In this document: positions 370-43,525 of the stretch, one piece after another | Layout: each line of letters opens with the position of its first letter | Position numbering within the stretch: position 1 is the stretch's first letter | Origin: Schlesneria sp. | GTDB lineage: Bacteria; Planctomycetota; Planctomycetia; Planctomycetales; Planctomycetaceae | DNA length: 64,000 bases | Assembly (NCBI GenBank): GCA_028291515.1 | Contig: JAQGHU010000008.1 | Span: 1 to 64,000, forward strand | Direction: 5' to 3' | The notes under the pieces: model-generated | Seen by the model: the letters and a program-made list of their open reading frames with translations, nothing else | The model's database searches: none | What the model was told of the DNA's origin: nothing | Program-made: the position numbers and the translations under genes

Positions 370-728
<359 letters not shown>

Positions 729-760
729 TTTTGACACCGGTTGACAACCGGCGACAATTG

Positions 761-4652: not shown

Positions 4653-7600
4653 TCATTGCTTCGTGGTAGTCGAAAGTGGAGTCACGAAGTCATCGCGCAT
4701 TCGGTATGCGGAGGACGAACCGCACTCGACAAGTACGTCCAGTAGGTACAGTACAGATTCCTTCAGCGTTGCGACGCTCTTTAATTCGATTGGTCGGCCG
4801 TAGATGTAACGGCGCAAGAGTGATTCCAACATGAAAACCGTATTAGACATGCGCAGCATGTCAGGTGCACTACCTGACCGCAGTCTTTCGGCAACTCGAC
4901 AAAATGCCATTGGCAAACACGTTTCGCCGATGTGGTAGAGAAATCGTACATAGTTGTCCACGACGAAAGAACAAGGTGGTAACTCTCCAAACAAAGAGTG
5001 CAACCGATGCGCGTGCTCTCCTTGCGCTGCGCCGTCGAGCCCCTGCCAATGACGAATCCCCCTTGGCCAGTAACTCGCAAGAAAGATTGCGCGAAGTACT
5101 TCATGGCCTGCAGAATGCCGATCCTCAATTCTTGCGAGCCACGATGCCATTTTGATTCGATCTGCGAATAGCTGCCAGACAGGCCACAAGCGGCCATTGG
5201 ACGAGGAAGCATCTTCCGACGCAACTATCCCTTCAATAGTGCTTGCAACCTCACGTGGATGACGATCAATGGCATCTAGAATTGGTTTCAGAATCTCTGA
5301 TGCCGACTCTAGGTTCACCCGAAGCACAAAATCATTCACCTGAAACGTAAGTGCCAATTCCGTCTTGCTTGAGTGGTCCCGACGCTTTTTGTGTCTGTGT
5401 TCGCCACGATCCTGATCATCCCACCACTGCACGAGTACCGCTGCCGTGCGACAAAAGGCCGCAACTGACTCGGGATGGCTTTCTGCATACTTCAATATCA
5501 ACAGGATTCTGTGATTCGCGTCAGATCCAATCCAATCAGATAGCTCCAAGCTTCCATATGCATCACCCAGTGCTTCAGAGAAAAAATGCTTTCGAATCTG
5601 CGCTGCAGCATGAAACTCGATCTCGGCCAATTGCATTTGTTCAGCAAAAGGCCGCTTCTGTTCTTTTTTCCACACGGACTGGACCAAATCTGCTTCAAAT
5701 GCCAGTGCAGAGACACATCGACGGGCCAAGTTGTAGTTGTCCGCACAGAGGTGACGACCGGCCCCATTACTCGCACAACTACGAACTTCGCAATTAGGGT
5801 GGGTCAATGCCAAGACAAAAGCATTTCGGACACGAGTACGGAGCGAGTCGGTCATTGGTCTATCCACCAATGAAGATACGACCCACGCGCAAGGTCTGTC
5901 GCCACGCATGGAATTGATTTGGATTCGATCCAACTCATTCCACATATTGGCGGTCTGCTCAATCGCCTCGCACACTTTCTCAACGCACCAACAGCTTTCC
6001 TGGCTTGAAAGCTCAGCAAAGTGATCTCTTACACATATCGCGGCAACAAATTCGGGGCCACTACGCGCAAATCGCATGGCCTGCGACTTGGTCCTAATTT
6101 TTTGTGCCTGTTGCAATCGCGATTTCCATTCCCTAGGATCGTAGGGATGTCCACCCGCTCCCTCGAATACCTTGACGCCCCACATTTGCGACCCAACCTG
6201 CTGCTCAATTTCAGCTTGTTGAAGCGCTGCTTCATCGGACATCGCCTGAATATCTGAATCTTGCAGCTCCATCTCAAGACGGAGCATCTTACTACCGTCA
6301 GCGGCGCTGTCTGACTTTGGCACTTCGACGATTTCGCCTGTGCGGTAGCCACGAAGATCCATACGTCGAAGCGCCAGCAACCAGATTCGATCGTCTTCAG
6401 TTCGGCTTTCACTTGGCGGAACGGCTTCGACGTGGCGATCTATGATGGCCTGGGCTGTTGCAGCGTGTTCGCCCAGTTGCAGATTTAAGATTGCTGCTTC
6501 CAAATCGCGAGACCGATGTTCCCAGCGGGCAGCTTCCCGGCGTTCTCGATCATGCAACTTGTGATCCGAGGACGACATCGCTTCATTCAACATCACTGGA
6601 CAACGCGATTCATCAGCCATGCGCTGTCGGTCAAGTTGAATGCAGTCTCGCGATCGGAGCAATGTTAGAAGTGTTTCTGGGCAGGCATGCGGGAATGCGG
6701 TCGCAAGACTTGCCGCAATGGCCGTGAGAGCGGCTGACTTCGAGGATCGAAGCAGTGTGCCGAGCAGACCGTCCAGTAGTTCGACGTCGGTCACTGCAAC
6801 TTCGATCAAACGGCGTTCCAATGCCATTAGGGCTGACTGCAGTGGATCTGGGCCGACAGCCGTACCACGATATAGATTCCATAGTCGGCTATTGGCCCAT
6901 TGCTCTTGGAATGTCTGATCTCCAAAGTCCAACTGAATCTTGGCCGGAGGCTCAACATGTTGGATTCTGATTCGCTCGCTGCCGTACCATTCGGCGCTGT
7001 GGTTCGCAACCTCGATGATGAAGTTCATCCCCAACTTCAAATGATGGCGAAGCAAGAAGAAGTATGGTCCCTGGTAAGCGCTGGCCGGAAAGTCGTCAAA
7101 CTCCACGGTTGGCTGGAATCCAAAGCCAACCACAAGCTCACTTGAATATCCGAAGCCGCGCGAATTCCGGAACTCTTCATCAGTCATGAGCAGAGTTGCT
7201 TTGGTCACTGCAATGACCTCATGTGGGAAGTCACGACAAGCTGCATTGCCTTCTATCCCCGAAAGTATCAACTCTCGAAACTCTTCCTCGATCCCCTTGA
7301 CATCTTGTGACATTACGCCATTCACTTCGCCCAACAACAATCGAAATCTCACTTCGTCACATTTGGGAAGAGAGGCAATAATGGATAAGACCTCCCTTCT
7401 GTTTTCTTCTTCGCGATACCCTTCGAATTGCGCCAAGAGCCAGTACGAAATAGCGATCGTTGCTTCAGAGCCCGTGGGATATGGTGTTCGCCAGGAGACT
7501 CCTCGGGCCATGCCCTTCACAAGACCCAGCAATAACCCTGACTCTTCCGATGCAAAGCAGGAAAGTCGGTCACTGATAAGCTGCAAAATGCATTGCCATG

Positions 7601-9755
7601 ATTCGCCCGCAGGAACCTGAATTTCGAGGTCAGTCCCCATTCCACCCTCAAACCACGGAGGGATAGCAACGCAACCTACGCGCAACAAATGAATCATCCG
7701 CTTCAACAAAACCTTGTCGTTGCCGAACAAGACGTCGACGTGACGCCGAATGAAATCTTGTGCACAGCCTGAGCAAAGGAGAGAGACGAGAGTATCGTCG
7801 CGGAACTGAGCTGATACAGACTCTTGTATGAGCGCCTCTGTGAACAAGGCATCGGCAGATTCAGGAACGCGCTCGACAAGTTCGCCCAACCATTTTCGAA
7901 ATCCCCGTCGAATCGCAGGGAAGCCTCCGAGCGCCTCCGACAGCTTTAACAAGTCGTCGCCAGCAAGTGCATGCTGTTCGTCGATCCACTGCAGAATCGC
8001 CCAATCTTCTAGGACATCGTGTGCAGGTGCTATCAACTTATCTGTCCGCGTAGAAGTCATTATCAAAGAATCGCTTGTGAGCTTGTCGACGGCAACGTCG
8101 TCCATGCCGTCGCGCGGCACGTACGGTGCTAAAGACTTTGCTCGACGAAGTGCAATCTCCACGAATACCTCTTGTCGTCGACGGGGCATCCCGTCGGCCA
8201 TGTGCGAGTTCGCTCGAATAACCTCCGCCCAGAACTTGGCACGAAACGCGATTTCGTTTTCCGGCAGCGAGTGATCAAGTGGCCAAGGCATTTGCGTTGC
8301 CTTGTCCAGCATATAGGGATTACTCAGGAGTCTGCGGAGCCGAATGTTGGCCAACGGTTGCGCGACTTCTGGGCAAGCCACGGCAACTTGATTCAGTTCC
8401 AATTCGTCCAAAGGCGAAATAGACACGCAAGTATGATTACTTGTCGCAAACTGCAATAACGATGACCGTACTAAATCTGCCGAATAGTCACGACAAGTCA
8501 TGATCACTCGCCAGCTGGCATCATGGGCGATCAATGAAAGCAAGTCTGCGAAGGCATCGCGAGTCGTTGCCTCCAAGAGCCGCTCGATGCTTTCGACCAA
8601 AAGCAGTTTTATTGGCTGGGCACTCAGAATGGCACCAAGTGTAACGCCATTGAGGCCAACTTGAGCGGCGTTCAATGTTTGATCCAGATGTGCCACTGCA
8701 AATTCTTCGGCACGGAATGCAAACGTGAAGTAATCCTTAGATGCTAAATCGAGGACTCTCTTTGCGATGCCCGATTTCCCACTCCCAGCACTCCCTGAAA
8801 TCAATACGATGGACGACTCTTGGAGACGTTCAAGAACTGACTGCACGACGTTTCGGCGATCCAGTTCGATTCGCAAGCCAATTGTTGTTCGAATCCCATC
8901 AAGTATTAGCTTGGAATGCTCTCGCAGACGACTGAGGAGATTCTGCTCCCTCGTTGCAACTGGCGAATGGCGGGCACGAAGCTCCGGTGAGAAGTCGTCC
9001 CGTCGATACGCTTTGGCTTCGGGCTTTCCTTCGCCAACTTCACGCAAAAGCTCATTCCAAGTAGCGTCGGCCGCGGCGAGAGGGGCGTCGCTGGCTGTGT
9101 ATGCCAGAAGCGATTTGATCTGTGCTTCTGATTGGCGAGTCGTCGTGTTCAAATCGAGGCTCAGCACATGCAATAGTCGGAGAAATGCCCAAATCTCCGT
9201 CTGGTCGCCTCTTCTAGCATCTCTACTTTCGATGATCTTGGCGACTTCATGGAAATGACTCACCGCCTTCGAATGAACCAGACCCTTTGTGCTGAGTCGG
9301 TTTGCAAATTCTTCTGACGAACGAGAAGTTCGAGCACAATCCAGCAGACCACCGAAGTGGCGCAACAGCACTTCTGTACCACGCAGCGTAATGATCGCGA
9401 ATCGGTCTTTACTTCGATCGAACAATTCACCGTTCTTGAAATCGTGCCACGCGTCGGTCATCAACTTCGAGAACTCGGGATCGGACGCGCTCACGGTAAT
9501 TGACTGCTTGACCTGGCAAACAAGTTTTCTCTTCTCTCCGAGACCATTCTCCCCGATAAGCAAGATGTCGTCCGTCTTCCAATTCAGACGCTCGGTCTGA
9601 AAATGGACCTCTGCCAATGTGCAGTCGGTCAATATCGGGGGTATAGCACGCATAAGCAGCCATGCCAAAAATGCTGCTCCGACATGCTGCTCGAAGTGCG
9701 TTCCTCCCCCGCCGGTCGAATTAGGACTCGAAACATGCAATGGCTGTCGGTCCAT
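4653..9755 (-). CDS. Avs-like STAND ATPase with N-terminal Cap4/Mrr-like nuclease
   Basis: The 1,700-residue protein has the order nuclease, STAND ATPase, long C-terminal sensor. Residues about 18-110 look like a PD-(D/E)XK dsDNA nuclease of the Cap4 type: FE at 21-22, TDD at 61-63 and QVK at 81-83. The ATPase shows a P-loop GSAGSGKS (321-328), a Walker B-like LLLVESIERLL, and the sensor TCRD. A winged-helix segment with HDVLEDWAIL follows near residue 590. The remaining 1,100 residues are helical, as in the sensor arms of antiviral STAND proteins that recognise phage terminase or portal. The open frame extends 98 codons further upstream, but the domain begins at ATG 9755 and the extension would overlap the divergent primase gene. 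No small partner gene is visible. Family membership is likely; the phage trigger is unknown. Confidence 0.8.
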   Translation of the reverse strand: MDRQPLHVSSPNSTGGGGTHFEQHVGAAFLAWLLMRAIPPILTDCTLAEVHFQTERLNWKTDDILLIGENGLGEKRKLVCQVKQSITVSASDPEFSKLMTDAWHDFKNGELFDRSKDRFAIITLRGTEVLLRHFGGLLDCARTSRSSEEFANRLSTKGLVHSKAVSHFHEVAKIIESRDARRGDQTEIWAFLRLLHVLSLDLNTTTRQSEAQIKSLLAYTASDAPLAAADATWNELLREVGEGKPEAKAYRRDDFSPELRARHSPVATREQNLLSRLREHSKLILDGIRTTIGLRIELDRRNVVQSVLERLQESSIVLISGSAGSGKSGIAKRVLDLASKDYFTFAFRAEEFAVAHLDQTLNAAQVGLNGVTLGAILSAQPIKLLLVESIERLLEATTRDAFADLLSLIAHDASWRVIMTCRDYSADLVRSSLLQFATSNHTCVSISPLDELELNQVAVACPEVAQPLANIRLRRLLSNPYMLDKATQMPWPLDHSLPENEIAFRAKFWAEVIRANSHMADGMPRRRQEVFVEIALRRAKSLAPYVPRDGMDDVAVDKLTSDSLIMTSTRTDKLIAPAHDVLEDWAILQWIDEQHALAGDDLLKLSEALGGFPAIRRGFRKWLGELVERVPESADALFTEALIQESVSAQFRDDTLVSLLCSGCAQDFIRRHVDVLFGNDKVLLKRMIHLLRVGCVAIPPWFEGGMGTDLEIQVPAGESWQCILQLISDRLSCFASEESGLLLGLVKGMARGVSWRTPYPTGSEATIAISYWLLAQFEGYREEENRREVLSIIASLPKCDEVRFRLLLGEVNGVMSQDVKGIEEEFRELILSGIEGNAACRDFPHEVIAVTKATLLMTDEEFRNSRGFGYSSELVVGFGFQPTVEFDDFPASAYQGPYFFLLRHHLKLGMNFIIEVANHSAEWYGSERIRIQHVEPPAKIQLDFGDQTFQEQWANSRLWNLYRGTAVGPDPLQSALMALERRLIEVAVTDVELLDGLLGTLLRSSKSAALTAIAASLATAFPHACPETLLTLLRSRDCIQLDRQRMADESRCPVMLNEAMSSSDHKLHDRERREAARWEHRSRDLEAAILNLQLGEHAATAQAIIDRHVEAVPPSESRTEDDRIWLLALRRMDLRGYRTGEIVEVPKSDSAADGSKMLRLEMELQDSDIQAMSDEAALQQAEIEQQVGSQMWGVKVFEGAGGHPYDPREWKSRLQQAQKIRTKSQAMRFARSGPEFVAAICVRDHFAELSSQESCWCVEKVCEAIEQTANMWNELDRIQINSMRGDRPCAWVVSSLVDRPMTDSLRTRVRNAFVLALTHPNCEVRSCASNGAGRHLCADNYNLARRCVSALAFEADLVQSVWKKEQKRPFAEQMQLAEIEFHAAAQIRKHFFSEALGDAYGSLELSDWIGSDANHRILLILKYAESHPESVAAFCRTAAVLVQWWDDQDRGEHRHKKRRDHSSKTELALTFQVNDFVLRVNLESASEILKPILDAIDRHPREVASTIEGIVASEDASSSNGRLWPVWQLFADRIKMASWLARIEDRHSAGHEVLRAIFLASYWPRGIRHWQGLDGAAQGEHAHRLHSLFGELPPCSFVVDNYVRFLYHIGETCLPMAFCRVAERLRSGSAPDMLRMSNTVFMLESLLRRYIYGRPIELKSVATLKESVLYLLDVLVECGSSSAYRMRDDFVTPLSTTTKQ

Positions 9756-9933
9756 TTGGATTCCGATGAACTGCTGGGAAAGGTTCAAGAACTCAGATAA
9801 CTGAATCGACACATGCGATTTTCGCAATCCATTAATACGCGAAAATGGTTGTCTTTCGACGGCGAGCGGCAACGGGTGTAGGGTGGAAATAGTGTTCTTT
9901 CCATTCTCAGTTCCCCAACTCAGGAGCCGTTCC

Positions 9934-11028
9934 ATGCGCGATCGACCGTATGTTTCATTTGCCGAAATCAAGCAGCGCGTCCCGATTCCAGATGTACTGG
10001 CCGTGCTGGGCCTCGCCGATCGGTTCACACGAAAAAAGGGGACGCTCACAGGCGTTTGTCCCTTGCCAAATCACCAGCATGGCCCGAGCCCCAATTCCGA
10101 ACCGTTCAAAATCAATCAGCGCGATGGACTGTGGCTCTGGCACTGTTTTGGTGATTGCCAACGCGGAGGTGATGTCATCGAGTTTGTCAAAGCCATGACC
10201 GGATTTGACAACTCTCATGTCCGCTTCTGGTTTGCGGAGCATTTCCCTGATCGACTGACGCTCCAGCAGCCACGCAGAACCGAGAGAGAAACGTCTGAAA
10301 CGTCCGAGGCACCCGCAAAAGAAAAGGCCCCTGCGACTCCCGGCAAGGAAAATTCGCAAGAGGCCCCCACGGCAAGCGCTGCCAACCAAACGATACCGAA
10401 CGACACTTCCCCACTCAAGCCCCTACGTTTCATTTTGAATCTGAACCCGGATGTTCCCTATCTCTTCGAGCGAGGTCTGAAGCCAGAGACGATTCGTCGT
10501 TTCGGAATTGGGCTGTGTCGCAAGGGCTTACTCGCTGGCTACGTGGCGATTCCTGTTTATGACTATCCCCGCCTACCGGGTACCAACCCCGTCGGTTATC
10601 TCGGTCGGTGGCCCGGTGAGCCAGCGGATGCGCGTGGCGACGAAACGGGCCCACTGCGGTACAAGTTCCCGGAAAACTTCCCACGCAATCGAGTCGTCTA
10701 TGGACTCGCAGAGGCTTTGCATGGCACCGAAGGACGGCCGTTGATCATCGTCGAAGGGCCATTTAAGGTCTATCACCTGTTTCAATCCGGATTTCCAAAC
10801 ACCGGAGCAACGTTCGGTGCGTCAGTCAGTGACGAGCAGATTGAAATCCTGGCGGCAACTCGTCGGCCGCTGATTTTGATGTTTGACGGTGACGAGGCTG
10901 GTCAAACGGGAATGCGTTCTGCCGCTGAGCGACTCATCAGTCGGGCATTGGTGCGCGTCGTCAAGCTCGAATCTGGACGACACCCGGACGATCTTTCGCG
11001 CTCGGAGCTGGAAAAAGTTCTTTCCTAA
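9934..11028 (+). CDS. CHC2 zinc-finger/Toprim DNA primase of plasmid type
   Basis: The protein (364 residues) would make RNA primers for element replication. The N-terminal zinc finger has the CHC2 pattern: CPLPNH, then WHCFGDC, then GGDVIEFV. A Ser/Thr/Glu/Pro-rich linker follows (about 115-165). The C-terminal half carries a Toprim domain with the IIVEGPFK glutamate and the LMFDGDEAG aspartates. It lacks a helicase domain, so it is a stand-alone primase. The ATG at 9934 is chosen because AGGAG lies 10 bases upstream; a longer frame starts at 9883. The linker codes partly for the same AAACGTC motif that is repeated around parA. A terminator follows at once. Confidence 0.85.
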   Translation: MRDRPYVSFAEIKQRVPIPDVLAVLGLADRFTRKKGTLTGVCPLPNHQHGPSPNSEPFKINQRDGLWLWHCFGDCQRGGDVIEFVKAMTGFDNSHVRFWFAEHFPDRLTLQQPRRTERETSETSEAPAKEKAPATPGKENSQEAPTASAANQTIPNDTSPLKPLRFILNLNPDVPYLFERGLKPETIRRFGIGLCRKGLLAGYVAIPVYDYPRLPGTNPVGYLGRWPGEPADARGDETGPLRYKFPENFPRNRVVYGLAEALHGTEGRPLIIVEGPFKVYHLFQSGFPNTGATFGASVSDEQIEILAATRRPLILMFDGDEAGQTGMRSAAERLISRALVRVVKLESGRHPDDLSRSELEKVLS

Positions 11029-13750: not shown

Positions 13751-15271
13751 ATGCCTTCCATCCTCGATGAATCCAAACCGACCTTCGCCGCCACATCATT
13801 GGCAGAGCGGCCGACAATCGTGGCCGAGGCGAACTTCCTTCGATTACCTCTGTTCGCGTTGCACACTAAAGGGCTCAAGCAACTCGACGGCTTTGAATGT
13901 CGGGGGACGACGACGCGCGACGACAAGACCTGGGAGTTTCTCTTTCGAACGGCCCGCAGCACGGCCACGCTCTATCCGGGATTGCTGTCTCGATCCGTTC
14001 ATTTGGCATTCTTGGGGATTGTCACGGAGAACGGATTGCCCTTTGCCAACCCCGTGACTTGGACGTGGCGCAATCTCTGTGTCCGGCTGGGCGTCCAACC
14101 ATCGGGGCAGATGGTGCAGCACCTGAAGGAGGCTGTCGAAGCCACGGCCGGGCTGACGATCTACAGCCAAGACGCCTTGTATTCCAAACCGGCGGGGCAA
14201 CGACTCAACACCCGCAAGGCGATGCACCTTTACGAAACCGTGGTCTTCGTCAACGAAACACTGCCAGATGGCCGCACGGCTGACACCAACTATCTCTGGC
14301 TCAGTGGCTGGTATCTCGACAACCTCAACGCCTTGTTCACGGCCCCGCTCGATCACGAACTGTGGCGGTATCTCGACAAACGGAGTCCGATTGCCAGTCG
14401 ACTATACGAATTCCTGCTCATTAACTTTCACGGCGGTATGCCGCAATTGCAGATCAATTATCCGCGACTGGCGCAGTTCCTGCCCGTCCGTCAGGAGCGG
14501 TACCTGTCCGACGCTCGCAAGCAATTTGAACCCGCCTTCAAATTACTTACGGAAACTCGTGTCACCGAGTCCGTGACGTGGCACAAACGGCGTGAGGACG
14601 TGGCCCAACTGAGATTTACGCGAGGGGCACGGTTGCTCCGTGGGAGAAAAGGGGAGATCGGTTCACTTCAACCTAACCGCGCCACTACGGCATTAGTCTC
14701 GGTGAGGGAAGTCCGGCGGACGCCGGAACAGGATCTTGTTCGCGAATTCTACCGCCAGTGGACAGGTCGTACCGATCAACAACCCCATTCCGCAGACTTG
14801 ACTCTCGCCAAGCGCATCCTCGTCGACTATGGCCGCTCCCAAGCCAAAGCCCTGCTGCCATCGGTGATCGAACAACTCAAACGCTACTGGCCAGGGGCCA
14901 AGACTTTCGTCGCGGTGGAACAGTACATCGCCGCCGCCGCTGAATCGCATGATCGGCAGCAGCGACGAGACCGGCGGCGTCAGCAACAACAGGAGACGGA
15001 ACGCCAGACCATGGAACAGGCGGAACGTCAAGCTGCGGAGCGTCAACAACTCGAAGCGAGTTGGCAACCGATCTGGGAGCAGTTGCCGGTGGGGAAGCAG
15101 GCTGCGATTCGCGACCGCGTGCTGAGTGTCCATCCGTTCCTGCGACATATGCCGCACGAATTGCAGTTTCGCTGTCTCCAAGAACTGGCCAGCCAGGGCG
15201 TCGAACGGGGCGATGCCGCTCCTGAGAGAGGGGAGAACCCCTTGCGAACGGCACGCAATCCACAGCTATGA
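13751..15271 (+). CDS. Plasmid replication initiator protein
   Basis: The 506-residue protein resembles RepA/TrfA-like initiators of broad-host-range plasmids. Residues about 25-260 form two winged-helix-like units with typical segments such as FLFRTARSTATLYPGLLSRS, HELWRYLDKRSPIASRLYEFL and LPVRQERYLSDARKQ. A second part (about 315-400) has helices and is followed by a Gln/Arg-rich coiled coil (about 395-440). It lies just after the 22-bp iterons, which it should bind. It overlaps the next gene by an ATGA junction. There is no strong ribosome site at the chosen ATG, so translation may depend on an upstream frame. Confidence 0.75.
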   Translation: MPSILDESKPTFAATSLAERPTIVAEANFLRLPLFALHTKGLKQLDGFECRGTTTRDDKTWEFLFRTARSTATLYPGLLSRSVHLAFLGIVTENGLPFANPVTWTWRNLCVRLGVQPSGQMVQHLKEAVEATAGLTIYSQDALYSKPAGQRLNTRKAMHLYETVVFVNETLPDGRTADTNYLWLSGWYLDNLNALFTAPLDHELWRYLDKRSPIASRLYEFLLINFHGGMPQLQINYPRLAQFLPVRQERYLSDARKQFEPAFKLLTETRVTESVTWHKRREDVAQLRFTRGARLLRGRKGEIGSLQPNRATTALVSVREVRRTPEQDLVREFYRQWTGRTDQQPHSADLTLAKRILVDYGRSQAKALLPSVIEQLKRYWPGAKTFVAVEQYIAAAAESHDRQQRRDRRRQQQQETERQTMEQAERQAAERQQLEASWQPIWEQLPVGKQAAIRDRVLSVHPFLRHMPHELQFRCLQELASQGVERGDAAPERGENPLRTARNPQL

Positions 15272-16689
15272 CGGAACCGCTCAAAAACGGCCAGGTAGAC
15301 CCACAACTACGACGTCGTCCTGGGGTGGCAGTGGCCAGCCCCAGGTCGACTGCGGCGGGCGCATTTCCTCGCGGGAGCGAGGACTCCGGGTCGGCAGGTG
15401 CCGTCCCTCCGGGGTTCGCAGGGCTCACCCAATCCACCCACCGCAGTCGACCTAGCGGACGACGTCGAACGGCCACCGGTGAAACAGCGACGTGGAACAG
15501 TTCTGACGGCTCTTCGAACGGCACTGGAAACGACTCCACGGCACCAACGAGTAGGGGAGAGAAGACCCGCCTGCGGACGGGATGGGAGTTGCCCGAGTTG
15601 ATCCGCCCGCTGCCGGTTCGCGAACGACGTTGTGCCCGCACGCCACGGCTGCAACATCATCAACCGGCCATCGTGGAGTACGTGTACTTGTCGCGATTCG
15701 CCACCGCATCCCAGGTGCAGCGTCGGTTTCCCAACTGGCTGCGAACAGCTCGTACGACGCAGTGGCAATTGGCCAACCTTGTCCAACTGGGGTTCTTGGC
15801 CACGACGCCGGTTCGGTCGACGTCACCAAATTTTCCCTTCGTCTATTTTGCGACCGGCAGGGGCGTGCGACTCATCAATGACACCTACGCCGCTCACAAC
15901 CTCGACACGACGTATCCTGTCGGCGAGGGCCGGAAGGCCAGTGGTGTCGCCGTGGACAGCATCCTGCATGAACTCTTGCTGACTGAGTTGGAACTGGCCG
16001 TGCGACTGACGGTGGAATCGCGAGATGACTTGAAGCTGCTGGCTACGGAGCGGCGCTACTACCGTCGAGATCGTCAATTGCGGTTCTACCAAGCCGGAAG
16101 GACACGTCGAGTGATCCCGGATGCAGGGTTCATGATCCGCGTAGGGAAGGCTGATTTAGCAACGTCGCAAAATAATTCTTTGGCGACAATGCTGAATTTT
16201 GTGGAGTTAGATAACGGCACCATGCCCCCCGGCCGGGTCTTGGAGAAACTACAGCAATACGCCGCCTGGGCCGAATCCGAGTCGGGACAGAAATATTTGC
16301 AGCTAACTTATTCTCGACACAGCGTGCCGGTTCCTCAGTCAGGATTCCGACTGTTGATTGTGGTTCACGACAAGCAACGGCCCGACGGTGACGAATCGCG
16401 GCTGGCGGCGCTGTTTCAGCAGGCGTTGGAACTTTCCCCCGCCATGCGAGATCGATTGTGGTTTGCGACGGCAACCGATCTAAAAGAACAGCAGTTCTAT
16501 TCCCCTCCCTTGGCTGGTGAAATCTGGTATCGGGCACGGGACGCCAAAAGCTGGCAGCAAGAATATCGCCGTCTGCCGGAACAGAAAGCGAACGGAATTC
16601 GCCGCCGGTTTGTGGCGGGTCAGCTTCGGTCACTCCCCCACCATCCCCTGTTTCCCAAGGAGACAGCACTCACTGAAGTGAGTCTTTGA
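15268..16689 (+). CDS. Replication-relaxation family protein (copy 1)
   Basis: The first 110 residues are a disordered Ser/Gly/Arg-rich extension. After that the protein follows the Replic_Relax family layout: a winged-helix segment (VEYVYLSRFATASQVQRRF), a wing ending in FVYFATGRGVRLI, then a mixed core with ERRYYRRDRQLRFY, a FVELDNGTMPPGRVLEKLQQY strand-helix pair and a RLLIVVHD strand. The core resembles an endonuclease fold with the E-L-D and K residues in place. Members are found on plasmids of Actinobacteria and Planctomycetes near replication genes. It is coupled to the initiator gene by a 4-bp overlap. A paralogue lies at the other end of the element. Confidence 0.7.
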   Translation: MTEPLKNGQVDPQLRRRPGVAVASPRSTAAGAFPRGSEDSGSAGAVPPGFAGLTQSTHRSRPSGRRRTATGETATWNSSDGSSNGTGNDSTAPTSRGEKTRLRTGWELPELIRPLPVRERRCARTPRLQHHQPAIVEYVYLSRFATASQVQRRFPNWLRTARTTQWQLANLVQLGFLATTPVRSTSPNFPFVYFATGRGVRLINDTYAAHNLDTTYPVGEGRKASGVAVDSILHELLLTELELAVRLTVESRDDLKLLATERRYYRRDRQLRFYQAGRTRRVIPDAGFMIRVGKADLATSQNNSLATMLNFVELDNGTMPPGRVLEKLQQYAAWAESESGQKYLQLTYSRHSVPVPQSGFRLLIVVHDKQRPDGDESRLAALFQQALELSPAMRDRLWFATATDLKEQQFYSPPLAGEIWYRARDAKSWQQEYRRLPEQKANGIRRRFVAGQLRSLPHHPLFPKETALTEVSL

Positions 16690-16740: not shown

Positions 16741-17223
16741 TCACAGGCTTGAGATCAGGATCTGCCGCAAGTCCTGCTTTGATTCGTACGCCGACATGAG
16801 CGGCGTCTTCATCTTCGACAACATTCCCAGAATGAACGGAGATGGCCTTTCAGTCTTCTCATAGACAGCAATGACCTGCTTATTCCTCTCGAATGCGATT
16901 CCCAGCTCCGCGCCCATCCCACTGGACGCTTCACCGATAAAGGCCACAATGACATCTGCCGCCAACACGGCTGCGTAATCTTTAACGAAAACATCAACCG
17001 GCGACATCCCTGAATGGTGTACCGGATCACTGGTCTTGTGCGGCAAATAGGCGATGAAACCGCAACTCTCGCAAACGTCGGCGGCGAATTCATACAACTC
17101 GCGAGCGGTTGTGAGATCGCCAGCCGAATGCAGGGCTCCGCACACGTACACTCGGCGAGCAAGAACTGGCCGTTCGCCCACGTCCGTGTCGCGCGCTTGG
17201 CTACTTGATTCGACGATGCTCAT
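16741..17223 (-). CDS. Nucleoside 2-deoxyribosyltransferase-like N-glycosidase
   Basis: The 160-residue protein has the family's Rossmann-like core. It opens with RVYVCGALHS, continues with TARELYEFAADVCESCGF, and carries ADVIVAFIGEASSGMGAELGIAFERN. In that last segment the Glu of AELG is the expected nucleophile. Relatives either swap bases between deoxyribosides or hydrolyse nucleoside monophosphates. In the mildiomycin and bacimethrin pathways a member of this family cleaves hydroxymethyl-CMP made by a thymidylate-synthase homologue, and such a homologue is encoded two genes upstream. The ATG at 17223 is preferred over an upstream start. It overlaps the previous gene by 23 bp and is the last gene of a four-gene operon. 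Confidence 0.75.
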   Translation of the reverse strand: MSIVESSSQARDTDVGERPVLARRVYVCGALHSAGDLTTARELYEFAADVCESCGFIAYLPHKTSDPVHHSGMSPVDVFVKDYAAVLAADVIVAFIGEASSGMGAELGIAFERNKQVIAVYEKTERPSPFILGMLSKMKTPLMSAYESKQDLRQILISSL

Positions 17224-18187
17224 GCAAAAAGTGTAACAGCCACCGACACAACTCTGCAACTCGTTGCAACGCGACTATGCCGCACCACCCTGCGCCTAAC
17301 GCCGCCAAAAGGATCACAACGACAATCCACCAGGAGCTTGCGATTGCCGCAGCGGCGGCTTGAAGATTCGTCGCGAAATCCGGCATTTGCATGGTGGCCA
17401 ATGCGACAGACAGAGCCACACCGCCGAACGTTGCACAAATCAGGTAGATGCCGAACATCACGATTTGGTTCGACCCTGACTCCACTGCGGCCAGCCGTTG
17501 CTTGGAACGCCGCAACATGCCAGTAAACCGCCGCATTTCTTGCTTGGCTTCCTGAAGTTCAGATTTCACATCAGCCATGTTACGAAAGAAAATCAAGCCT
17601 ACATCCCCAGGGCCTTTGTTGGAAAGGAATTGTTCCTGCAGCGACTCGAAACCGCCGCTCGGGACATCAATCTTTTCGTTTGGTGCAGTAACGTACGAAA
17701 ACTGAATCGAAGCAATCCGTTCATTCCCGGGCTTCATCACCACCGGCCCTGGCCCCATATTGGCGAGCAGAAAATGAAGACGCTGATCATTCTTCGGAAA
17801 CCAGTTATTGCCATGCTGCTCTAGACCATATCCAGGGTCCACAAAACCACCGGTCAGAGTCAGGACTCCTTTGGCCGCCAGTGCGAATTTCGGCGCGATG
17901 TGCCCCGAGACATTCCAGGGCAGGCAAAGTCGTTCCTTGGTAGACACAAAGGCCACATCCCCTGGCAGCAGAATTACGTTTTCGTTTCGGTGCTCATCCA
18001 CAGCATAATACCGGCCCGAGGGATGGCGAGGCCGATCTGGAACAACAATGACATCCGTGGCCATTGTTAAATCGTAGCAGGCCGCTCGAACATTGTCGGG
18101 GCTCCACGTCATAGGTTTGAACACTTGATTGCCTGTGAGCAACTGGAGAATCTGCTCGTGCCCAAGAAGGGTGCCTGGTTTGGACAT
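17201..18187 (-). CDS. Membrane-anchored dCTP-deaminase/dUTPase-fold protein
   Basis: Residues about 1-200 follow the dCTP deaminase/dUTPase fold: FVSTKERLCLPWNVSGHIA, then a GGFVDPGY segment equal to the vdPGf-x-G motif, then MKPGNERIASIQF equal to the mriaQl-f strand. The usual R-S-S-x-A-R motif is replaced by PKFALAAKG, so activity is uncertain. A short coiled coil (about 205-240) leads to two membrane segments (about 245-268 and 285-310) and a basic tail. A membrane-tethered version is unusual. dCTP deaminases are known antiphage enzymes, but this protein might only sense nucleotides. The ATG at 18187 is preferred to the GTG one codon upstream. It follows the thymidylate-synthase homologue by 11 bp. 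Confidence 0.7.
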   Translation of the reverse strand: MSKPGTLLGHEQILQLLTGNQVFKPMTWSPDNVRAACYDLTMATDVIVVPDRPRHPSGRYYAVDEHRNENVILLPGDVAFVSTKERLCLPWNVSGHIAPKFALAAKGVLTLTGGFVDPGYGLEQHGNNWFPKNDQRLHFLLANMGPGPVVMKPGNERIASIQFSYVTAPNEKIDVPSGGFESLQEQFLSNKGPGDVGLIFFRNMADVKSELQEAKQEMRRFTGMLRRSKQRLAAVESGSNQIVMFGIYLICATFGGVALSVALATMQMPDFATNLQAAAAAIASSWWIVVVILLAALGAGWCGIVALQRVAELCRWLLHFLHEHRRIK

Positions 18188-18198
18188 CACTCGAAATC

Positions 18199-19197
18199 CT
18201 ACTGGCAGTATTGGAGAATCGCTCGCAGCGGCTCGGCGGCAGTGGCAACGAGTTCGCCCTCAAGGTCCGTCATTCCGAGCTTCCTGTAGGCGAACTGCAA
18301 CAAGATCGCAGCTGCCTGTTCCGAAAAAGAACCGCTCGGAAACTTGGAGTAAGCGAACGATGTGACAGCATCCTGGTCACCATTCAATACGGCACTTCTT
18401 AAAGCGGCCTCGTATTGCCAGAGGTTTGAAATGGCGTCCTCTTCTCCGTCGAACCAGCCGAGATCCGCCGCCGGAATTGTTTCAGCAGAAACAGCGCTGG
18501 CGAGTGCCCGTTCATCCTCATAAACATGCAATGTGCCGCACACATGAGTGTAGTGGCCGATGCTCGCTCGCAATTGCCAAGCGACATAGAACTGCAAAGC
18601 GACAAACAGAAAGACATCATGCGGCAGGAGGTTCAGCGCATGCTGGGCTCGCATATACGTTATCGAATGCAGTTTGCCGTCTCGAAGAAAATACTGTATC
18701 CCTGCGCTGCATGGAAACTCACGGGTTTCGGTGCGGTTATCGCTAGGTGTACAGATCGACGCAAATGCACGACGTGTGCCGGGATCGCGGCGAAGTCGCT
18801 CAATGACCTGTTTGATTTGGTTGATGCCATCATACGCAAACAGCCGCTTACCGAACGCTCCGCAAAGACTAATTCCATCGTGTGCAAAATGACGAGCTCC
18901 CGTGTGATAGTAGGAAAGCCATTCTGGATCATCGGAGCCCGCCAGCGCCCAAAGGAATTGGCCGATTGAATACTCCCATCTGATGTGCTTCGATTGCGGC
19001 AAGGCGAAGAGATTTCTGGGGTTCTCGATTGTGAAGGTGTAGGCCAGCAACTCAATCGAGGGACGCGGAGCAGTTCCAAAATGTGACGCTGGCGAAAGAG
19101 GATCGACGATTGGCGGTGCCGCTTCGCCATGTCTGAGCAAGTCGGACAGCCCGCTTGCCAATGCCGCCGAGAACGATTCATAAACGCACGGCGACAT
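18199..19197 (-). CDS. Thymidylate-synthase homologue, possibly a (d)CMP (hydroxy)methylase
   Basis: The 332-residue protein aligns with ThyA in its active-site block. The catalytic cysteine is in REFPCSAGIQYF. The phosphate-binding Arg is in TYMRAQ, and the ribose-contacting pair is in LHVYEDE. In ThyA the base is read by the Asn of LPFNI. Here the ungapped match is LPHDV, so Asp stands at that place, as in dCMP hydroxymethylases. This predicts a cytosine nucleotide as substrate, giving hydroxymethyl- or methyl-(d)CMP. The C-terminal 100 residues diverge. It lies 16 bp after the Nudix gene and 11 bp before the deaminase-fold gene. Substrate choice is inference from one residue plus context. 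Confidence 0.75.
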   Translation of the reverse strand: MSPCVYESFSAALASGLSDLLRHGEAAPPIVDPLSPASHFGTAPRPSIELLAYTFTIENPRNLFALPQSKHIRWEYSIGQFLWALAGSDDPEWLSYYHTGARHFAHDGISLCGAFGKRLFAYDGINQIKQVIERLRRDPGTRRAFASICTPSDNRTETREFPCSAGIQYFLRDGKLHSITYMRAQHALNLLPHDVFLFVALQFYVAWQLRASIGHYTHVCGTLHVYEDERALASAVSAETIPAADLGWFDGEEDAISNLWQYEAALRSAVLNGDQDAVTSFAYSKFPSGSFSEQAAAILLQFAYRKLGMTDLEGELVATAAEPLRAILQYCQ

Positions 19198-19213
19198 GCA
19201 TCACCATTCTGGA

Positions 19214-19627
19214 TTAAAGAAGATTGGCCGTAAGTAGATAAGGTAGAATCTGATTCGCAATGCTGGGAGCAAGTTGTTCTCGAAGAAGGGCGTCAGCGGG
19301 ATCAAGCCAGCGGTATTCGACGATTTCATTCGCGGGCAGCAGCAGTCCCTGGATTTCACCGTTGTAGAGACGGATCTCGACGATGGAGTCCGGTTCGTTA
19401 GCGGCTCGATCGGAGAAAGTGCCGATGAACGAAACCGAGGTGACATCCAATCGGGCGCTCAATTCTTCGGTAATTTCGCGTTCCAAAGTCATGGTGTCGT
19501 TTTCATTCGGCTCCGGCCTGCCCCCCGGCAGGATATACCAAGGGGAGCCGTCTTTGCGAACCACGAGTAAACGTCGTTCACGTATTACGACAAGGCCGAT
19601 TTTTGTAATTGTGTGCGATTGTGTCAT
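19214..19627 (-). CDS. Nudix hydrolase
   Basis: The 137-residue protein has a complete Nudix box: GGRPEPNENDTMTLEREITEEL, with the R-E-x-x-E-E core that binds the metal. Such enzymes split nucleoside diphosphates linked to another group, including (d)NTPs. It is the first gene of the nucleotide operon and would fit as the step that turns a triphosphate into the monophosphate used by the thymidylate-synthase homologue. A sigma70-like promoter with an internal palindrome lies just upstream. The exact substrate cannot be read from the sequence. Confidence 0.85.
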   Translation of the reverse strand: MTQSHTITKIGLVVIRERRLLVVRKDGSPWYILPGGRPEPNENDTMTLEREITEELSARLDVTSVSFIGTFSDRAANEPDSIVEIRLYNGEIQGLLLPANEIVEYRWLDPADALLREQLAPSIANQILPYLLTANLL

Positions 19628-19660
19628 ATGCTGATGATATCACGAATAAATTGGTGGCTG

Positions 19661-19689
19661 TAAATAAGTGTTTATAGAAACACGTTCAA
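19661..19689 (-). promoter_or_regulatory. Promoter with palindromic operator for the nucleotide operon
   Basis: On the minus strand TTGAAC (19684-19689) and TATTTA (19661-19666) are separated by exactly 17 bp, a good sigma70-like layout. The spacer is filled by the palindrome GTGTTTCTATAAACAC (19668-19683), the expected site of a repressor. The Nudix ATG lies 34 bp downstream of the -10 box. Confidence 0.6.
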
Positions 19690-19774: not shown

Positions 19775-22126
19775 TTACGGAGAGTTGAGCAGAGTGTTTC
19801 TGAGGTCGGTTGGGACAATGTCATCAGGTAGCAGACGGAATCGTAGTACATAATTCCCGGTACGTGAAAAACCTGGGGATGGACCATTCCCGCGAATGCG
19901 GAGACGGTATTCGCGATGCGCGGCGGCGATGAAGACGATCCGGTCACGGTGCCTCCTAAGAAATGTCGTTTCCTCATAGAGCTCGACCAACGTATCCAGG
20001 CTGCTGTGCGGAGTTTCTGACCTGATCAGGATCACACCGTTCTCGGGTGGCTTCAGCACGATCCAATCTTCGTCGTCCGGCACTGAGATCGATCCGATCA
20101 GGACGGCATGGCCAGCCTCATCAAACCTCATAGCATGCGGTTCGGATGGTGAGTCTCCGTACGCGTCTTTCACCGGAGCACTGTGATCAGTGAGGAACGG
20201 CTCCATTTGTGGGGCCGATTTCGGTTGGGAAGCGACAACCAAAAAGGGGCCATTTCGGCCTTGTGTGCTGGTGATCGTGACGAAGTAATCGCCAGCCTGT
20301 ACTACCGACAAAACGACTTGGGAATCGTTCGCGGGCCCGGAGTTCCCGTCTTCAGCCAGTTCCTTCAAATCCGCATCAAAGACCGTCATCTTTCCGTCAA
20401 ACTCATCCGTCGGCGTTAAGGCTTCGATTAGCAGCAATCCAGTGTGGACGGACTTCACACAGAACCATTGCGTTTCGCTGGAACTGTTGACTTCCCCGGC
20501 GGCACTCGCCCGCCCCACTGGTCCGAGATCCAGCGGAACAGCGGTCGACGCATCCGTCCCCGGCGGAAGTGCGGTCAATGTCGCGGAACGGTGATCAACC
20601 TGGTCCGGAGTCGCCGGTGGCTTCCCATTCCCTGTCGACCCCTGCTGCCGTCCGCCAGCAAACCAGATAATCACAGACACTGCGGCCAGGCAACCGATGC
20701 CAACGGCAACTCGTTCCATCACCTTCCGTCGTCGCGGCGTCGGCGCACCAGTATCGATCACCGCTGGTTTTTCTCGGTGTTCCAGAGCGGCGGCAAAGTC
20801 ACCGGCTGTCTGGTAGCGGTGAATTCGCTCTTTGGCGATGGCTTTCAGACAAATGGCCGACAGCGTCTCATCGAGTTCCGGTCGTCGTGTCTGCGGGGCT
20901 GGCGGGTCTCGGTGCAGAATCCCCATGACGACTTCGGACAGGCTCCCCACAAATGGCAGTTCTCCGGTCAGGGCTTGGTACAGGACCACCCCCAGGCTGT
21001 AAACATCACTGCGCTGGTCGCTTGGCTCCCCGACTAATTGTTCGGGAGGCATATAGGCTGGTGTGCCCATGAATCCGTCGGGGGCGGCGGAGGTGCGAGA
21101 CGCCAAGCCGAAGTCCGTCAACAGTGGTTCGCCGTGCTCGTCCAGCAAGATGTTCTGCGGCTTGATGTCCTGATGGATGATGCCCTCCCGGTGGAGGCTG
21201 TCGAGCGCCTTCGCCACCTTAACGACGATCCCCGTCGCTTCATCGGGAGATGGCAACTGCCGTTTCCAGCGGACACTCAGGGCCTCGCCGTTGATCAAGG
21301 CCAGGATGATGTAATATTGACCGTCGATTTCTCCCGCTTCATAGATCGGGCAGATGTGGGAATGGCGGATGTGAGCCGCGACTCGCGCTTCTTTGAGAAA
21401 CTCCTGCGTCGTTTGCACGCTGTCAAAATGCGGGGCCTTGAGAGCGACTTCGCGCATCAGATTGGGATCGTAGGCGCGGTAGACGATCCCCATCGAGCCA
21501 TATCCCAGCACTTCACAAATTTGAAATCGCCCAAACGACTTCCCCACTGCCAGTGGAGATTCCGGCGCGGTGGAAATCGGACTGGCCGGGTGATTCGTCG
21601 TCCCCACTTCGTTCGCTCTGGAACCACCGCCAGTATCCGTGTCGGTCGTGCCGATACCGTCTTCGCTCCCCGGCTTTCGTAGTCGAGCGGAGGTTCGGTC
21701 ACTTTCGACTTCCGCGACAATGGCCGGAATATCCACGTCGGTCACCGTGGGAAATCGCGACCGCAGTTCGGCATCGGTCGGAGCGACGCCATAGACGATT
21801 CGAGTCCAGCACTCTGCCGTCAGTAACTCCCTGATGATCACAGCATCTCCGGCGAGGTGCGGATAGGCGCTGAGATACGCCTCCACGAATCGCTGTTCCC
21901 CGCTGCGCCAGCGACACTCCTGATCGACTTTGATCAGTTCCGCCAGGATGCGTTCGCGAAAGCAATCTTCCTCAGCCGGTATGAATGCTGCCAGATCTGG
22001 CGACGTTTCCTGTTTCCAGGCCGCTTCCAACCGATTCACGGCCTCGACCATCCGCGCCCAGGCGGCAGGGTTCCACTCCCCCGCACAGATGCTAGCTTCA
22101 GGCTCGATGTCGGTGGCCATTGGCAA
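19775..22126 (-). CDS. Ser/Thr protein kinase with C-terminal sensor repeats
   Basis: The 783-residue protein has an N-terminal cytoplasmic extension (about 1-195). A kinase domain (about 200-460) follows, with a glycine loop GYGSMG, catalytic Lys in VALKAP, catalytic loop HQDIKPQN and DFG. The Arg of the usual HRD is Gln here, so it is a non-RD kinase with the Asp kept. One membrane segment follows (about 480-500). The outside part has two copies of a pre-peptidase-like beta module, each near the phrase LLIEA or LIRSETP. It lies 85 bp after an ECF sigma gene; this pairing is typical of Planctomycetes, where the kinase is thought to control the sigma factor. Confidence 0.88.
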   Translation of the reverse strand: MPMATDIEPEASICAGEWNPAAWARMVEAVNRLEAAWKQETSPDLAAFIPAEEDCFRERILAELIKVDQECRWRSGEQRFVEAYLSAYPHLAGDAVIIRELLTAECWTRIVYGVAPTDAELRSRFPTVTDVDIPAIVAEVESDRTSARLRKPGSEDGIGTTDTDTGGGSRANEVGTTNHPASPISTAPESPLAVGKSFGRFQICEVLGYGSMGIVYRAYDPNLMREVALKAPHFDSVQTTQEFLKEARVAAHIRHSHICPIYEAGEIDGQYYIILALINGEALSVRWKRQLPSPDEATGIVVKVAKALDSLHREGIIHQDIKPQNILLDEHGEPLLTDFGLASRTSAAPDGFMGTPAYMPPEQLVGEPSDQRSDVYSLGVVLYQALTGELPFVGSLSEVVMGILHRDPPAPQTRRPELDETLSAICLKAIAKERIHRYQTAGDFAAALEHREKPAVIDTGAPTPRRRKVMERVAVGIGCLAAVSVIIWFAGGRQQGSTGNGKPPATPDQVDHRSATLTALPPGTDASTAVPLDLGPVGRASAAGEVNSSSETQWFCVKSVHTGLLLIEALTPTDEFDGKMTVFDADLKELAEDGNSGPANDSQVVLSVVQAGDYFVTITSTQGRNGPFLVVASQPKSAPQMEPFLTDHSAPVKDAYGDSPSEPHAMRFDEAGHAVLIGSISVPDDEDWIVLKPPENGVILIRSETPHSSLDTLVELYEETTFLRRHRDRIVFIAAAHREYRLRIRGNGPSPGFSRTGNYVLRFRLLPDDIVPTDLRNTLLNSP

Positions 22127-43409: not shown

Positions 43410-43499
43410 GGCCAGGCAACTGCAGCGCTGGTGCAGCGCAAGGGTTTTCCTGTTTTTTGCAACTGCAAGTGGCATCGTCGGTTGTCTGTGAATCAGAAT

Positions 43500-43525
43500 G
43501 GGGGTTCAATTCCCCCCGCCTCCAT
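43500..43525. repeat. Right att copy of the 26-bp ssrA repeat
   Basis: This is identical to the ssrA end at 704-729. Sequence left of it (TGTGAATCAGAAT) is not a tmRNA body, so this is a repeat and not a second RNA gene. The recombinase gene of the next element starts 174 bp to the right. Confidence 0.9.

What the first reader, a model, noticed from the sequence alone, without database searches (positions are those of the whole stretch)
16741..19689. Four-gene nucleotide operon: Nudix, Asp-type thymidylate-synthase homologue, membrane dCTP-deaminase-fold protein, deoxyribosyltransferase-like protein
The four genes are packed with gaps of 16 and 11 bp and one 23-bp overlap under one promoter. 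Seen: the thymidylate-synthase homologue has Asp (LPHDV) where ThyA has the base-reading Asn (LPFNI), and keeps the catalytic Cys. Known: this Asp marks dCMP hydroxymethylases, and in mildiomycin and bacimethrin synthesis a TS homologue makes hydroxymethyl-CMP that a deoxyribosyltransferase-like enzyme then cleaves. Inference: Nudix makes (d)CMP, the TS homologue modifies it, and the glycosidase releases the modified base, with a membrane nucleotide sensor or deaminase as fourth part. This could be antiphage nucleotide depletion or a base-derived signal or antimetabolite. I know of no described system with these four parts.
Basis: partly seen in the sequence, partly recalled or inferred. Interest (0 to 1): 0.8.

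Follow-up and report, generated by a model that had tools for sequence, protein, structure and literature searches.

The report
Cytosine-nucleotide modification operon with membrane sensor
On a mobile DNA island in an unnamed bacterium, four packed genes look able to make, sense and destroy a modified cytosine nucleotide, with a thymidylate-synthase-like enzyme that seems to have lost its folate site; if they work together this could be a new kind of nucleotide-based signalling or anti-phage system, but that is untested.

Summary
The four genes are real and packed (Nudix, TS homologue, DCD-fold protein with two TM segments, NDT-family N-glycosidase). They are cargo of a ~42.8 kb element at the tmRNA gene that also carries an Avs4-like defence gene. 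The Asp at the base-reading position is confirmed, and the genome has ThyX, so the TS homologue is accessory.

The enzyme assignment needs correcting. The TS homologue sits in an 18-member clade (Streptomycetaceae loci, one cyanobacterium, this window) that keeps Cys, cytosine-reading Asp and sugar/phosphate residues, but lost the folate-activating Glu (kept by 98 of 100 other homologues), the pterin Asp and a folate-pocket Gly. Six phage proteins of the AfhB kind (AfhB: PDB 'dCMP hydroxylase') lost the same three. Non-folate C5 modification of (d)CMP, perhaps hydroxylation, is thus likelier than hydroxymethylation. The glycosidase has DNPH1's Tyr-Asp-Glu triad. The DCD protein lacks the deaminase Glu, as do all 8 family members compared, and looks like a membrane receptor; four such genes adjoin TS-family genes.

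The complete four-gene set was found nowhere else searched, so joint function is inference. Best guess, about 0.33: a make-sense-erase nucleotide signalling module.

The parts
19214..19627 (-). Nudix hydrolase, 137 aa; Nudix box intact except last Gly -> Ser; proposed eraser of the (modified) dNTP
   Evidence: Pfam NUDIX 5.6e-13; box at residue 36; PADLOC candidate family PDC-S07 1.4e-9, probably general Nudix similarity
18199..19197 (-). Thymidylate-synthase homologue, 332 aa; C163, R142, D194 (cytosine-reading), H224, Y226 kept; folate-site Q80/H186/L190 in place of Glu/Asp/Gly; proposed non-folate C5-modifying (d)CMP enzyme
17201..18190 (-). dCTP-deaminase-fold domain (about residues 1-170), helical linker and two C-terminal TM segments; catalytic Glu and Arg lost; proposed nucleotide receptor/effector in the membrane
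16741..17223 (-). Nucleoside-2-deoxyribosyltransferase-family protein, 160 aa from ATG; triad Y26/D82/E106 and phosphate residues S100/G102 as in DNPH1; proposed N-glycosidase of the modified dNMP
697..729 (.). Left copy of a 33-bp direct repeat at the 3' end of the tmRNA gene (370-728): att-like element end
43493..43525 (.). Right copy of the 33-bp repeat (94% identical): att-like element end
4653..10049 (-). Avs4-like STAND NTPase on the same element (context, not part of the operon)
   Evidence: PADLOC Avs4 1.3e-146; nSTAND1 1.2e-7

Best explanation
A make-sense-erase module for a modified cytosine nucleotide, carried as cargo by an integrated mobile element. Make: the TS-fold protein uses its Cys and Asp to activate (d)CMP and modifies C5 without the canonical folate site; 5-hydroxylation with a flavin, as reported for phage AfhB, is the likeliest chemistry. 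Sense: after phosphorylation the modified (d)CTP is bound by the catalytically dead DCD-fold domain, which drives its membrane segments (gating, leakage or growth arrest). Erase: Nudix cuts the triphosphate and the DNPH1-like glycosidase cuts the monophosphate, so that the signal stays low except under a trigger such as phage-raised dNTP or kinase levels. Shown from sequence: domains, packing, kept and lost residues, membrane segments, location on the element. Inferred: every activity, the substrate, the signal, the trigger and the joint function.
For: Packed genes. ThyX elsewhere and no other PF00303 match in the genome, so the TS homologue is accessory. 18-member clade (FastTree 0.995; 7 representatives 100/98 with the signature columns left out). 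In it C, R, D, H and Y are kept 18/18; the Glu is L16/Q1/N1 against E98/D2 in 100 others; the pterin Asp is Q16/H1/S1 against D99/E1; the Gly is V17/L1 against G99/Y1. Roles of Glu60/58, Asp171/169 and Gly173 in folate binding: passages of PMC6400193. Six AfhB-type phage rows have F, N and V/T at the same three places and keep Cys and Asp. PDB titles: 9iqu 'dCMP hydroxylase-AfhB', 9iqc 'Monooxygenase dependent on riboflavin with dCMP and FAD'. PMC13390438 section 7: mosigviruses make 5-hydroxy-dCMP with a TS-superfamily synthase. Glycosidase triad as in DNPH1. DCD Glu lost in 8 of 8 family members and Arg in 7 of 8; TM segments in 8 of 8; solved E138A E. coli DCD holds dCTP (title of 1xs4), so loss of this Glu need not end binding. 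DCD-TM genes adjoin TS-family genes in the window, L042, L044 and L122. Same element as Avs4.
Against: No second copy of the four-gene set. MilA (folate type) is still the best sequence and fold match of the TS homologue; by Foldseek AfhB (rows 13, 21) ranks below several canonical TS. The data neither join the clade to AfhB (AU p 0.224) nor to MilA (p 0.295) and reject neither. AfhB keeps no Glu in one alignment but a Glu aligns there in another made with a trimmed stretch. Sugar markers conflict: Ala184 is MilA-like (ribo), Arg142 and Tyr26 of the glycosidase are deoxy-like. Of 5 DCD-TM genes found by DCD searches and examined, 2 adjoin a TS gene. No trigger protein is visible. PADLOC finds none of TS, DCD or glycosidase.
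Confidence: 0.33

Rival explanations
1. Antimetabolite or small natural product: TS homologue and glycosidase make a free modified cytosine, as in mildiomycin/bacimethrin, with Nudix and the membrane protein for self-protection or export.
For: The TS clade's other members sit in gene clusters with radical SAM enzymes: B12-type in 13 of 17 loci, and in L049 and L050 a MilB-like glycosidase, a radical SAM and a DegT aminotransferase. MilA and MilB are the best PDB hits.
Against: No transporter or tailoring gene was recognised beside the operon (neighbours are Replic_Relax on one side, Ser/Thr kinase and a sigma-like gene on the other); the P-F-(R/K) motif is missing; a pseudo-deaminase membrane protein has no role in those pathways.
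Confidence: 0.2
2. Nucleotide poisoning or depletion of phages: the modified dCMP (or loss of dCMP) harms phage DNA synthesis directly; no signal is sensed.
For: Location on an element with Avs4; nucleotide-pool defence exists (Clover, abstract of PMC12265719).
Against: Does not explain a conserved dead DCD fold on TM segments.
Confidence: 0.14
3. Sanitation of oxidised pyrimidine nucleotides: Nudix and glycosidase remove 5-hydroxy- or other damaged (d)C nucleotides, TS homologue and DCD-TM bind or trap them.
For: Nudix and DNPH1-type enzymes are typical cleaners (DNPH1 acts on 5-hydroxymethyl-dUMP, passages of PMC10483697).
Against: Retained nucleophile Cys in 18 of 18 clade members speaks for chemistry, not trapping; the set is on a mobile element and not in the relatives searched.
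Confidence: 0.12
4. No joint function: four separately acquired nucleotide genes side by side on a mobile element.
For: The four-gene set was not found again.
Against: Tight packing with a 23-bp overlap; TS-family/DCD-TM neighbours recur in three other loci.
Confidence: 0.18

Closest known systems
MilA/MilB pair (CMP hydroxymethylase and hydroxymethyl-CMP hydrolase, mildiomycin)
   Same: TS fold with Cys and cytosine-reading Asp, Ala at the ribose position; paired with an NDT-family N-glycosidase; best PDB hits
   Different: Glu68 and the pterin Asp are lost, Lys133 is Arg; glycosidase has Tyr for Phe and lacks P-F-(R/K); extra Nudix and DCD-TM; not in an antibiotic cluster
Phage AfhB / 5-hydroxy-dCMP synthase of mosigviruses
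   Same: Loss of the same three folate-site residues, Gln at position 185 (4 of 6 phage rows), Cys and Asp kept
   Different: Shorter (238 aa against 332), Ser for Ala at the sugar position, phage DNA modification context; common origin not resolved
DNPH1 (5-hydroxymethyl-dUMP N-hydrolase)
   Same: Tyr-Asp-Glu triad and Ser/Gly phosphate residues
   Different: Low similarity (E 0.065 and worse); substrate unknown
Trimeric dCTP deaminase / dUTPase family
   Same: Fold (Foldseek 2qlp E 1.3e-11; profile hits from 1.1e-27); DPG Asp kept
   Different: Deaminase Glu and Arg lost, TM segments added
Clover and other nucleotide-signal defences
   Same: Idea of dNTP-derived activating and restraining signals (abstract of PMC12265719)
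   Different: None of its proteins; here a base-modifying enzyme and a membrane DCD fold

Membership tests
Folate-dependent (d)CMP hydroxymethylase (MilA, T4 gp42) | Nucleophilic Cys and cytosine-reading Asp | tested here: met
   C163 and D194, 18 of 18 clade members
Folate-dependent (d)CMP hydroxymethylase (MilA, T4 gp42) | Glu that activates methylene-THF (Glu60/58/68) | tested here: not met
   Q80 in the window, L16/N1 in the rest of the clade; E98/D2 in 100 others, of which three are second copies of one locus
Folate-dependent (d)CMP hydroxymethylase (MilA, T4 gp42) | Pterin-site Asp and folate-pocket Gly | tested here: not met
   H186 and L190; D99 and G99 in 100 others
AfhB-type (flavin) dCMP hydroxylase | Loss of the three folate-site residues with Cys and Asp kept | tested here: met
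   6 of 6 AfhB-type phage rows and 18 of 18 clade members; the Glu column of AfhB itself depends on the alignment
AfhB-type (flavin) dCMP hydroxylase | Common branch with AfhB | tested here: inconclusive
   FastTree joined them at 0.989 with signature columns in; careful tree without them did not; AU p 0.224
AfhB-type (flavin) dCMP hydroxylase | Flavin binding and hydroxylase activity | not testable with these tools
   needs purified protein
NDT superfamily 2'-deoxynucleoside 5'-phosphate N-hydrolase | Tyr-Asp-Glu triad, Ser/Gly phosphate site | tested here: met
   Y26, D82, E106, S100, G102 (DNPH1 residues)
MilB subgroup (hydroxymethyl-CMP hydrolase) | P-F-(R/K) motif | tested here: not met
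   A30-L31-H32 (motif from passages of PMC4081090)
dCTP deaminase | Deaminase Glu (E138 in E. coli) and Arg (R115) | tested here: not met
   Leu and Ala in the window; Glu missing in 8 of 8 and Arg in 7 of 8 family members, present in the two solved enzymes aligned
Nudix hydrolase | Nudix box | tested here: met
   Box at residue 36 with the last Gly replaced by Ser
Anti-phage defence system | Recognised by a defence library | tested here: not met
   PADLOC: 0 families for TS, DCD and glycosidase at E <= 1; Nudix PDC-S07 only
Anti-phage defence system | Protects cells from phage | not testable with these tools
   needs a phage challenge in a laboratory strain

The most novel reading that the evidence does not exclude
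A previously undescribed immune or stress signalling module in which a folate-free TS-fold enzyme makes a hydroxylated (or otherwise C5-modified) cytosine nucleotide, a dead dCTP-deaminase fold on membrane helices is its receptor and effector, and Nudix plus a DNPH1-like glycosidase are its two erasers; more widely, membrane DCD-fold proteins would be a receptor family for modified pyrimidine nucleotides paired with different TS-family synthases.
Probability: 0.25. Interest if true: 0.88.

Novelty: new variant of a known kind. Interest (0 to 1): 0.6.

Why it matters
If true, it adds a modified deoxypyrimidine nucleotide to the known bacterial signals, gives a function to catalytically dead dUTPase-fold proteins on membranes, and shows that the TS fold left folate chemistry in cellular genes, not only in phages. 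Even without the signalling idea, the 18-member clade is a clear test set: one purified protein would tell whether cellular TS homologues hydroxylate cytosine nucleotides. That also bears on the Streptomyces clusters in which the clade occurs.

Tried and rejected
Rejected or downgraded: (1) the TS homologue as the cell's own dTMP source: ThyX is present. (2) A plain folate hydroxymethylase: lost residues. (3) A working deaminase: lost residues. (4) PADLOC PDC-S07 on the Nudix as proof of defence: likely family-level similarity. (5) Grouping with AfhB as shown ancestry: the FastTree grouping did not survive a careful tree without the signature columns. (6) 'DCD' structures 8y1w and 9ln0 as counter-examples of a Glu-less deaminase: their entry titles call them dUTPases.

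Led nowhere: IMG/VR scans with single TS and DCD proteins; DCD in phages; glycosidase in plasmids; promoter and terminator scan; a look for an integrase (none among the element proteins I scanned by Pfam, which were not all of them). The DCD model has mean pLDDT 64.2 and only its DCD core is usable. No model of the glycosidase or of a trimer was made. One search used a wrong record for the four window queries (a script error); one search repeated it correctly, and only the non-window queries stand.

Papers. Seen as passages: PMC5175136, PMC4081090, PMC10853773, PMC12697855, PMC6400193, PMC10483697. Section 7 and passages: PMC13390438. Abstract and outline: PMC12265719. All others only as search listings. 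That no paper describes these four genes together rests on ten listings in an open-licence library only. Recalled, from no call: the older prediction papers on nucleotide-centred conflict systems and hypermodified bases, the Phe-to-Tyr sugar switch of MilB, E. coli TS and Dcd residue numbers beyond the passages cited, the weak activity of TS Glu58 mutants, bacimethrin genes.
Full report
WHAT IS THERE. They lie between a Replic_Relax gene (15268-16689) and a Ser/Thr kinase gene (19775-22126), inside a segment bounded by a 33-bp direct repeat, 697-729 and 43493-43525, 94% identical, start-to-start 42796 bp. The left copy is the 3' end of the tmRNA gene. This looks like an element integrated at ssrA; I did not identify its integrase. 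It also holds an Avs4-like STAND gene (PADLOC 1.3e-146), a Toprim/primase-like gene and a ParA-like gene, and a second Replic_Relax and a weak TrwB-like match.

THE TS HOMOLOGUE IS ACCESSORY. The genome has one PF00303 match, this one, and a ThyX (E 1.5e-49).

FAMILY OF THE TS HOMOLOGUE. A genome scan matched 230 stretches, 196 encoding relatives, of which the best 80 were kept. I aligned the window protein with 117 ORF segments from those 80 loci and from 36 other loci held (29 loci and seven others); three of the loci are present twice. Eighteen rows form one clade: the window, 16 Streptomycetaceae loci (15 Streptomyces, one Streptantibioticus; two of them in one genome) and one cyanobacterial MAG (FastTree 0.995). 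Seven of these rows form a 100/98 branch in an IQ-TREE analysis with the signature columns left out.

LOST FOLATE SITE. In the clade, Cys, phosphate Arg, cytosine Asp, His and Tyr are kept 18/18. The Glu that activates methylene-THF is L16/Q1/N1 (window Q80), against E98/D2 in the other 100 rows. The pterin Asp is Q16/H1/S1 (window H186), against D99/E1. The folate-pocket Gly is V17/L1 (window L190), against G99/Y1. [quoted passage not shown] Position 185 is Gln 18/18 in the clade and 2 of 100 elsewhere.

A PRECEDENT. In PDB sequence searches the TS homologue finds MilA first (7.2e-27), then 9iqu/9iqc (1.5e-15), then canonical TS (1.5e-11); a clade-only profile gives the same order (9.9e-48, 2.4e-20, 5.9e-17). 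Titles of these entries: 'phage HY126 dCMP hydroxylase-AfhB' and 'Monooxygenase dependent on riboflavin with dCMP and FAD'. PMC13390438 states that mosigviruses make 5-hydroxy-dCMP by a TS-superfamily synthase (section 7). I fetched ten phage TS-family genes: eight from the AfhB search and two. Six of the ten (HY126, Apostate, PTm5, phiM9, N34, PAU) have Phe, Asn and Val/Thr at the three folate places and keep Cys and Asp; the other four keep Glu, Asp and Gly.

AGAINST IT. In an alignment with a trimmed AfhB stretch a Glu falls on the Glu column. MilA leads every search, including Foldseek on the confident model (mean pLDDT 90.2; MilA rows 1-7, AfhB rows 13 and 21 behind some canonical TS). 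With signature columns removed, neither clade+AfhB (AU p 0.224; 0.335 with PAU added) nor clade+MilA (p 0.295) is rejected. So shared or parallel loss of the folate site is open, and so is the chemistry. In two of 17 clade loci (L049, L050) a MilB-like glycosidase lies near; that of L049 has the F-x-G-G-P-F-K motif, which speaks for an active enzyme whose product carries a 5-substituent.

SUGAR. MilA's ribose markers are Ala176 and Lys133 (PMC5175136, passages). The window has Ala184 but Arg142, so the prediction is mixed.

THE GLYCOSIDASE. Y26, D82 and E106 with S100 and G102 match the DNPH1 residues Tyr24, Asp80, Glu104, Ser98 and Gly100 (alignments). PDB similarity is weak: MilB 0.0022 and DNPH1 entries 0.065 or worse. 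The hydroxymethyl-reading motif of MilB (PMC4081090) is absent.

THE DCD PROTEIN. Foldseek finds dCTP deaminase:dUTPase 2qlp (1.3e-11), though the model is good only in the core. I compared eight members (window, L041, L042, L044, L046, L112, L122, L131). The deaminase Glu is missing in 8 of 8, the Arg in 7 of 8, and the two solved enzymes aligned have both. Hydropathy gives at least one TM segment in 8 of 8. Two solved Glu-less relatives are entitled dUTPases.

NEIGHBOURS OF THE DCD PROTEIN. A TS-family gene adjoins it in four of the eight loci: the window (folate-less type), L122 (folate type with Asp), L042 and L044 (folate type with Asn). Three of these loci were found by TS searches, wholly or also, so the fraction is biased. 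Of the five found by DCD searches and examined (window, L042, L041, L046, L131), two adjoin a TS gene. DCD hits in G139 and G634 were not examined further. L042 carries HMUDK_hel and Peptidase_M78 genes (Pfam); L044 holds proteins that look alike by eye; L131 has an HMUDK relative (8e-130), and beside it MazG-like and TIR-like proteins judged by eye only.

CONSERVATION OF THE SET. DCD: 4 of 392 same-phylum and 3 of 397 same-class genomes match, the window's own included. TS: 127 of 392 match at 1e-3, the next best at 6.3e-29 being of another type (only the 29 best of the others were aligned); 1 of 397 at 1e-20, the window itself. The two samples overlap. In the 17 other clade loci, queries with the window's glycosidase, DCD and Nudix found nothing at 1e-4. 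The set is therefore a singleton in what I searched.

INTERPRETATION. A maker (TS fold), two erasers (Nudix for triphosphate, glycosidase for monophosphate) and a non-catalytic membrane binder are what a nucleotide signalling module needs, and the element also carries a defence gene. The idea that bacteria sense phage-type modified nucleotides has been proposed for another system (DndF, passages of PMC10853773). Everything beyond residues, folds and location is inference. My odds: TS homologue modifies (d)CMP without canonical folate use about 0.6; DCD-TM is a non-catalytic binder about 0.6; the joint signalling reading 0.33.

Noticed in passing
Loci L066-L128 (56 of 80 loci), also L039, L040, L043: A widespread bacterial gene set: Asp-type TS homologue, often a protein without Pfam match, an aGPT-Pplase3/ADDT-family protein, a convergent ImmA/IrrE-like protein and a small protein. 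aGPT3 and ImmA relatives occur together in 56 of 80 loci.
   Followed up: partly
L042:2131-7381 and L044:1578-6591: Two same-phylum loci with Peptidase_M78, a Pfam-less protein, HMUDK_hel, Asn-type TS and DCD-TM, suggesting a hydroxymethyl-uracil version of the TS/DCD-TM pair (L044 partly by eye).
   Followed up: partly
L131:3413-11400: DCD-TM beside an HMUDK relative, a MazG-like protein and two TIR-like proteins (the last three by eye).
   Followed up: no
L049, L050 and L037, L051, L053-L061, L063, L064: Streptomycetaceae clusters with the folate-less TS clade: with MilB-like glycosidase, radical SAM and DegT in L049/L050, with a B12-type radical SAM in 13 of 17 clade loci; product unknown.
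   Followed up: partly
window 697-43525: Integrated element at the tmRNA 3' end with an Avs4-like gene, an HATPase gene with a weak EAD1 match (1520-3100) and replication/partition genes.
   Followed up: partly
L062:402-5261: Cyanobacterial clade member lies in a run with a guanylate-kinase/methyltransferase fusion, a radical SAM and a Ham1-like gene.
   Followed up: no
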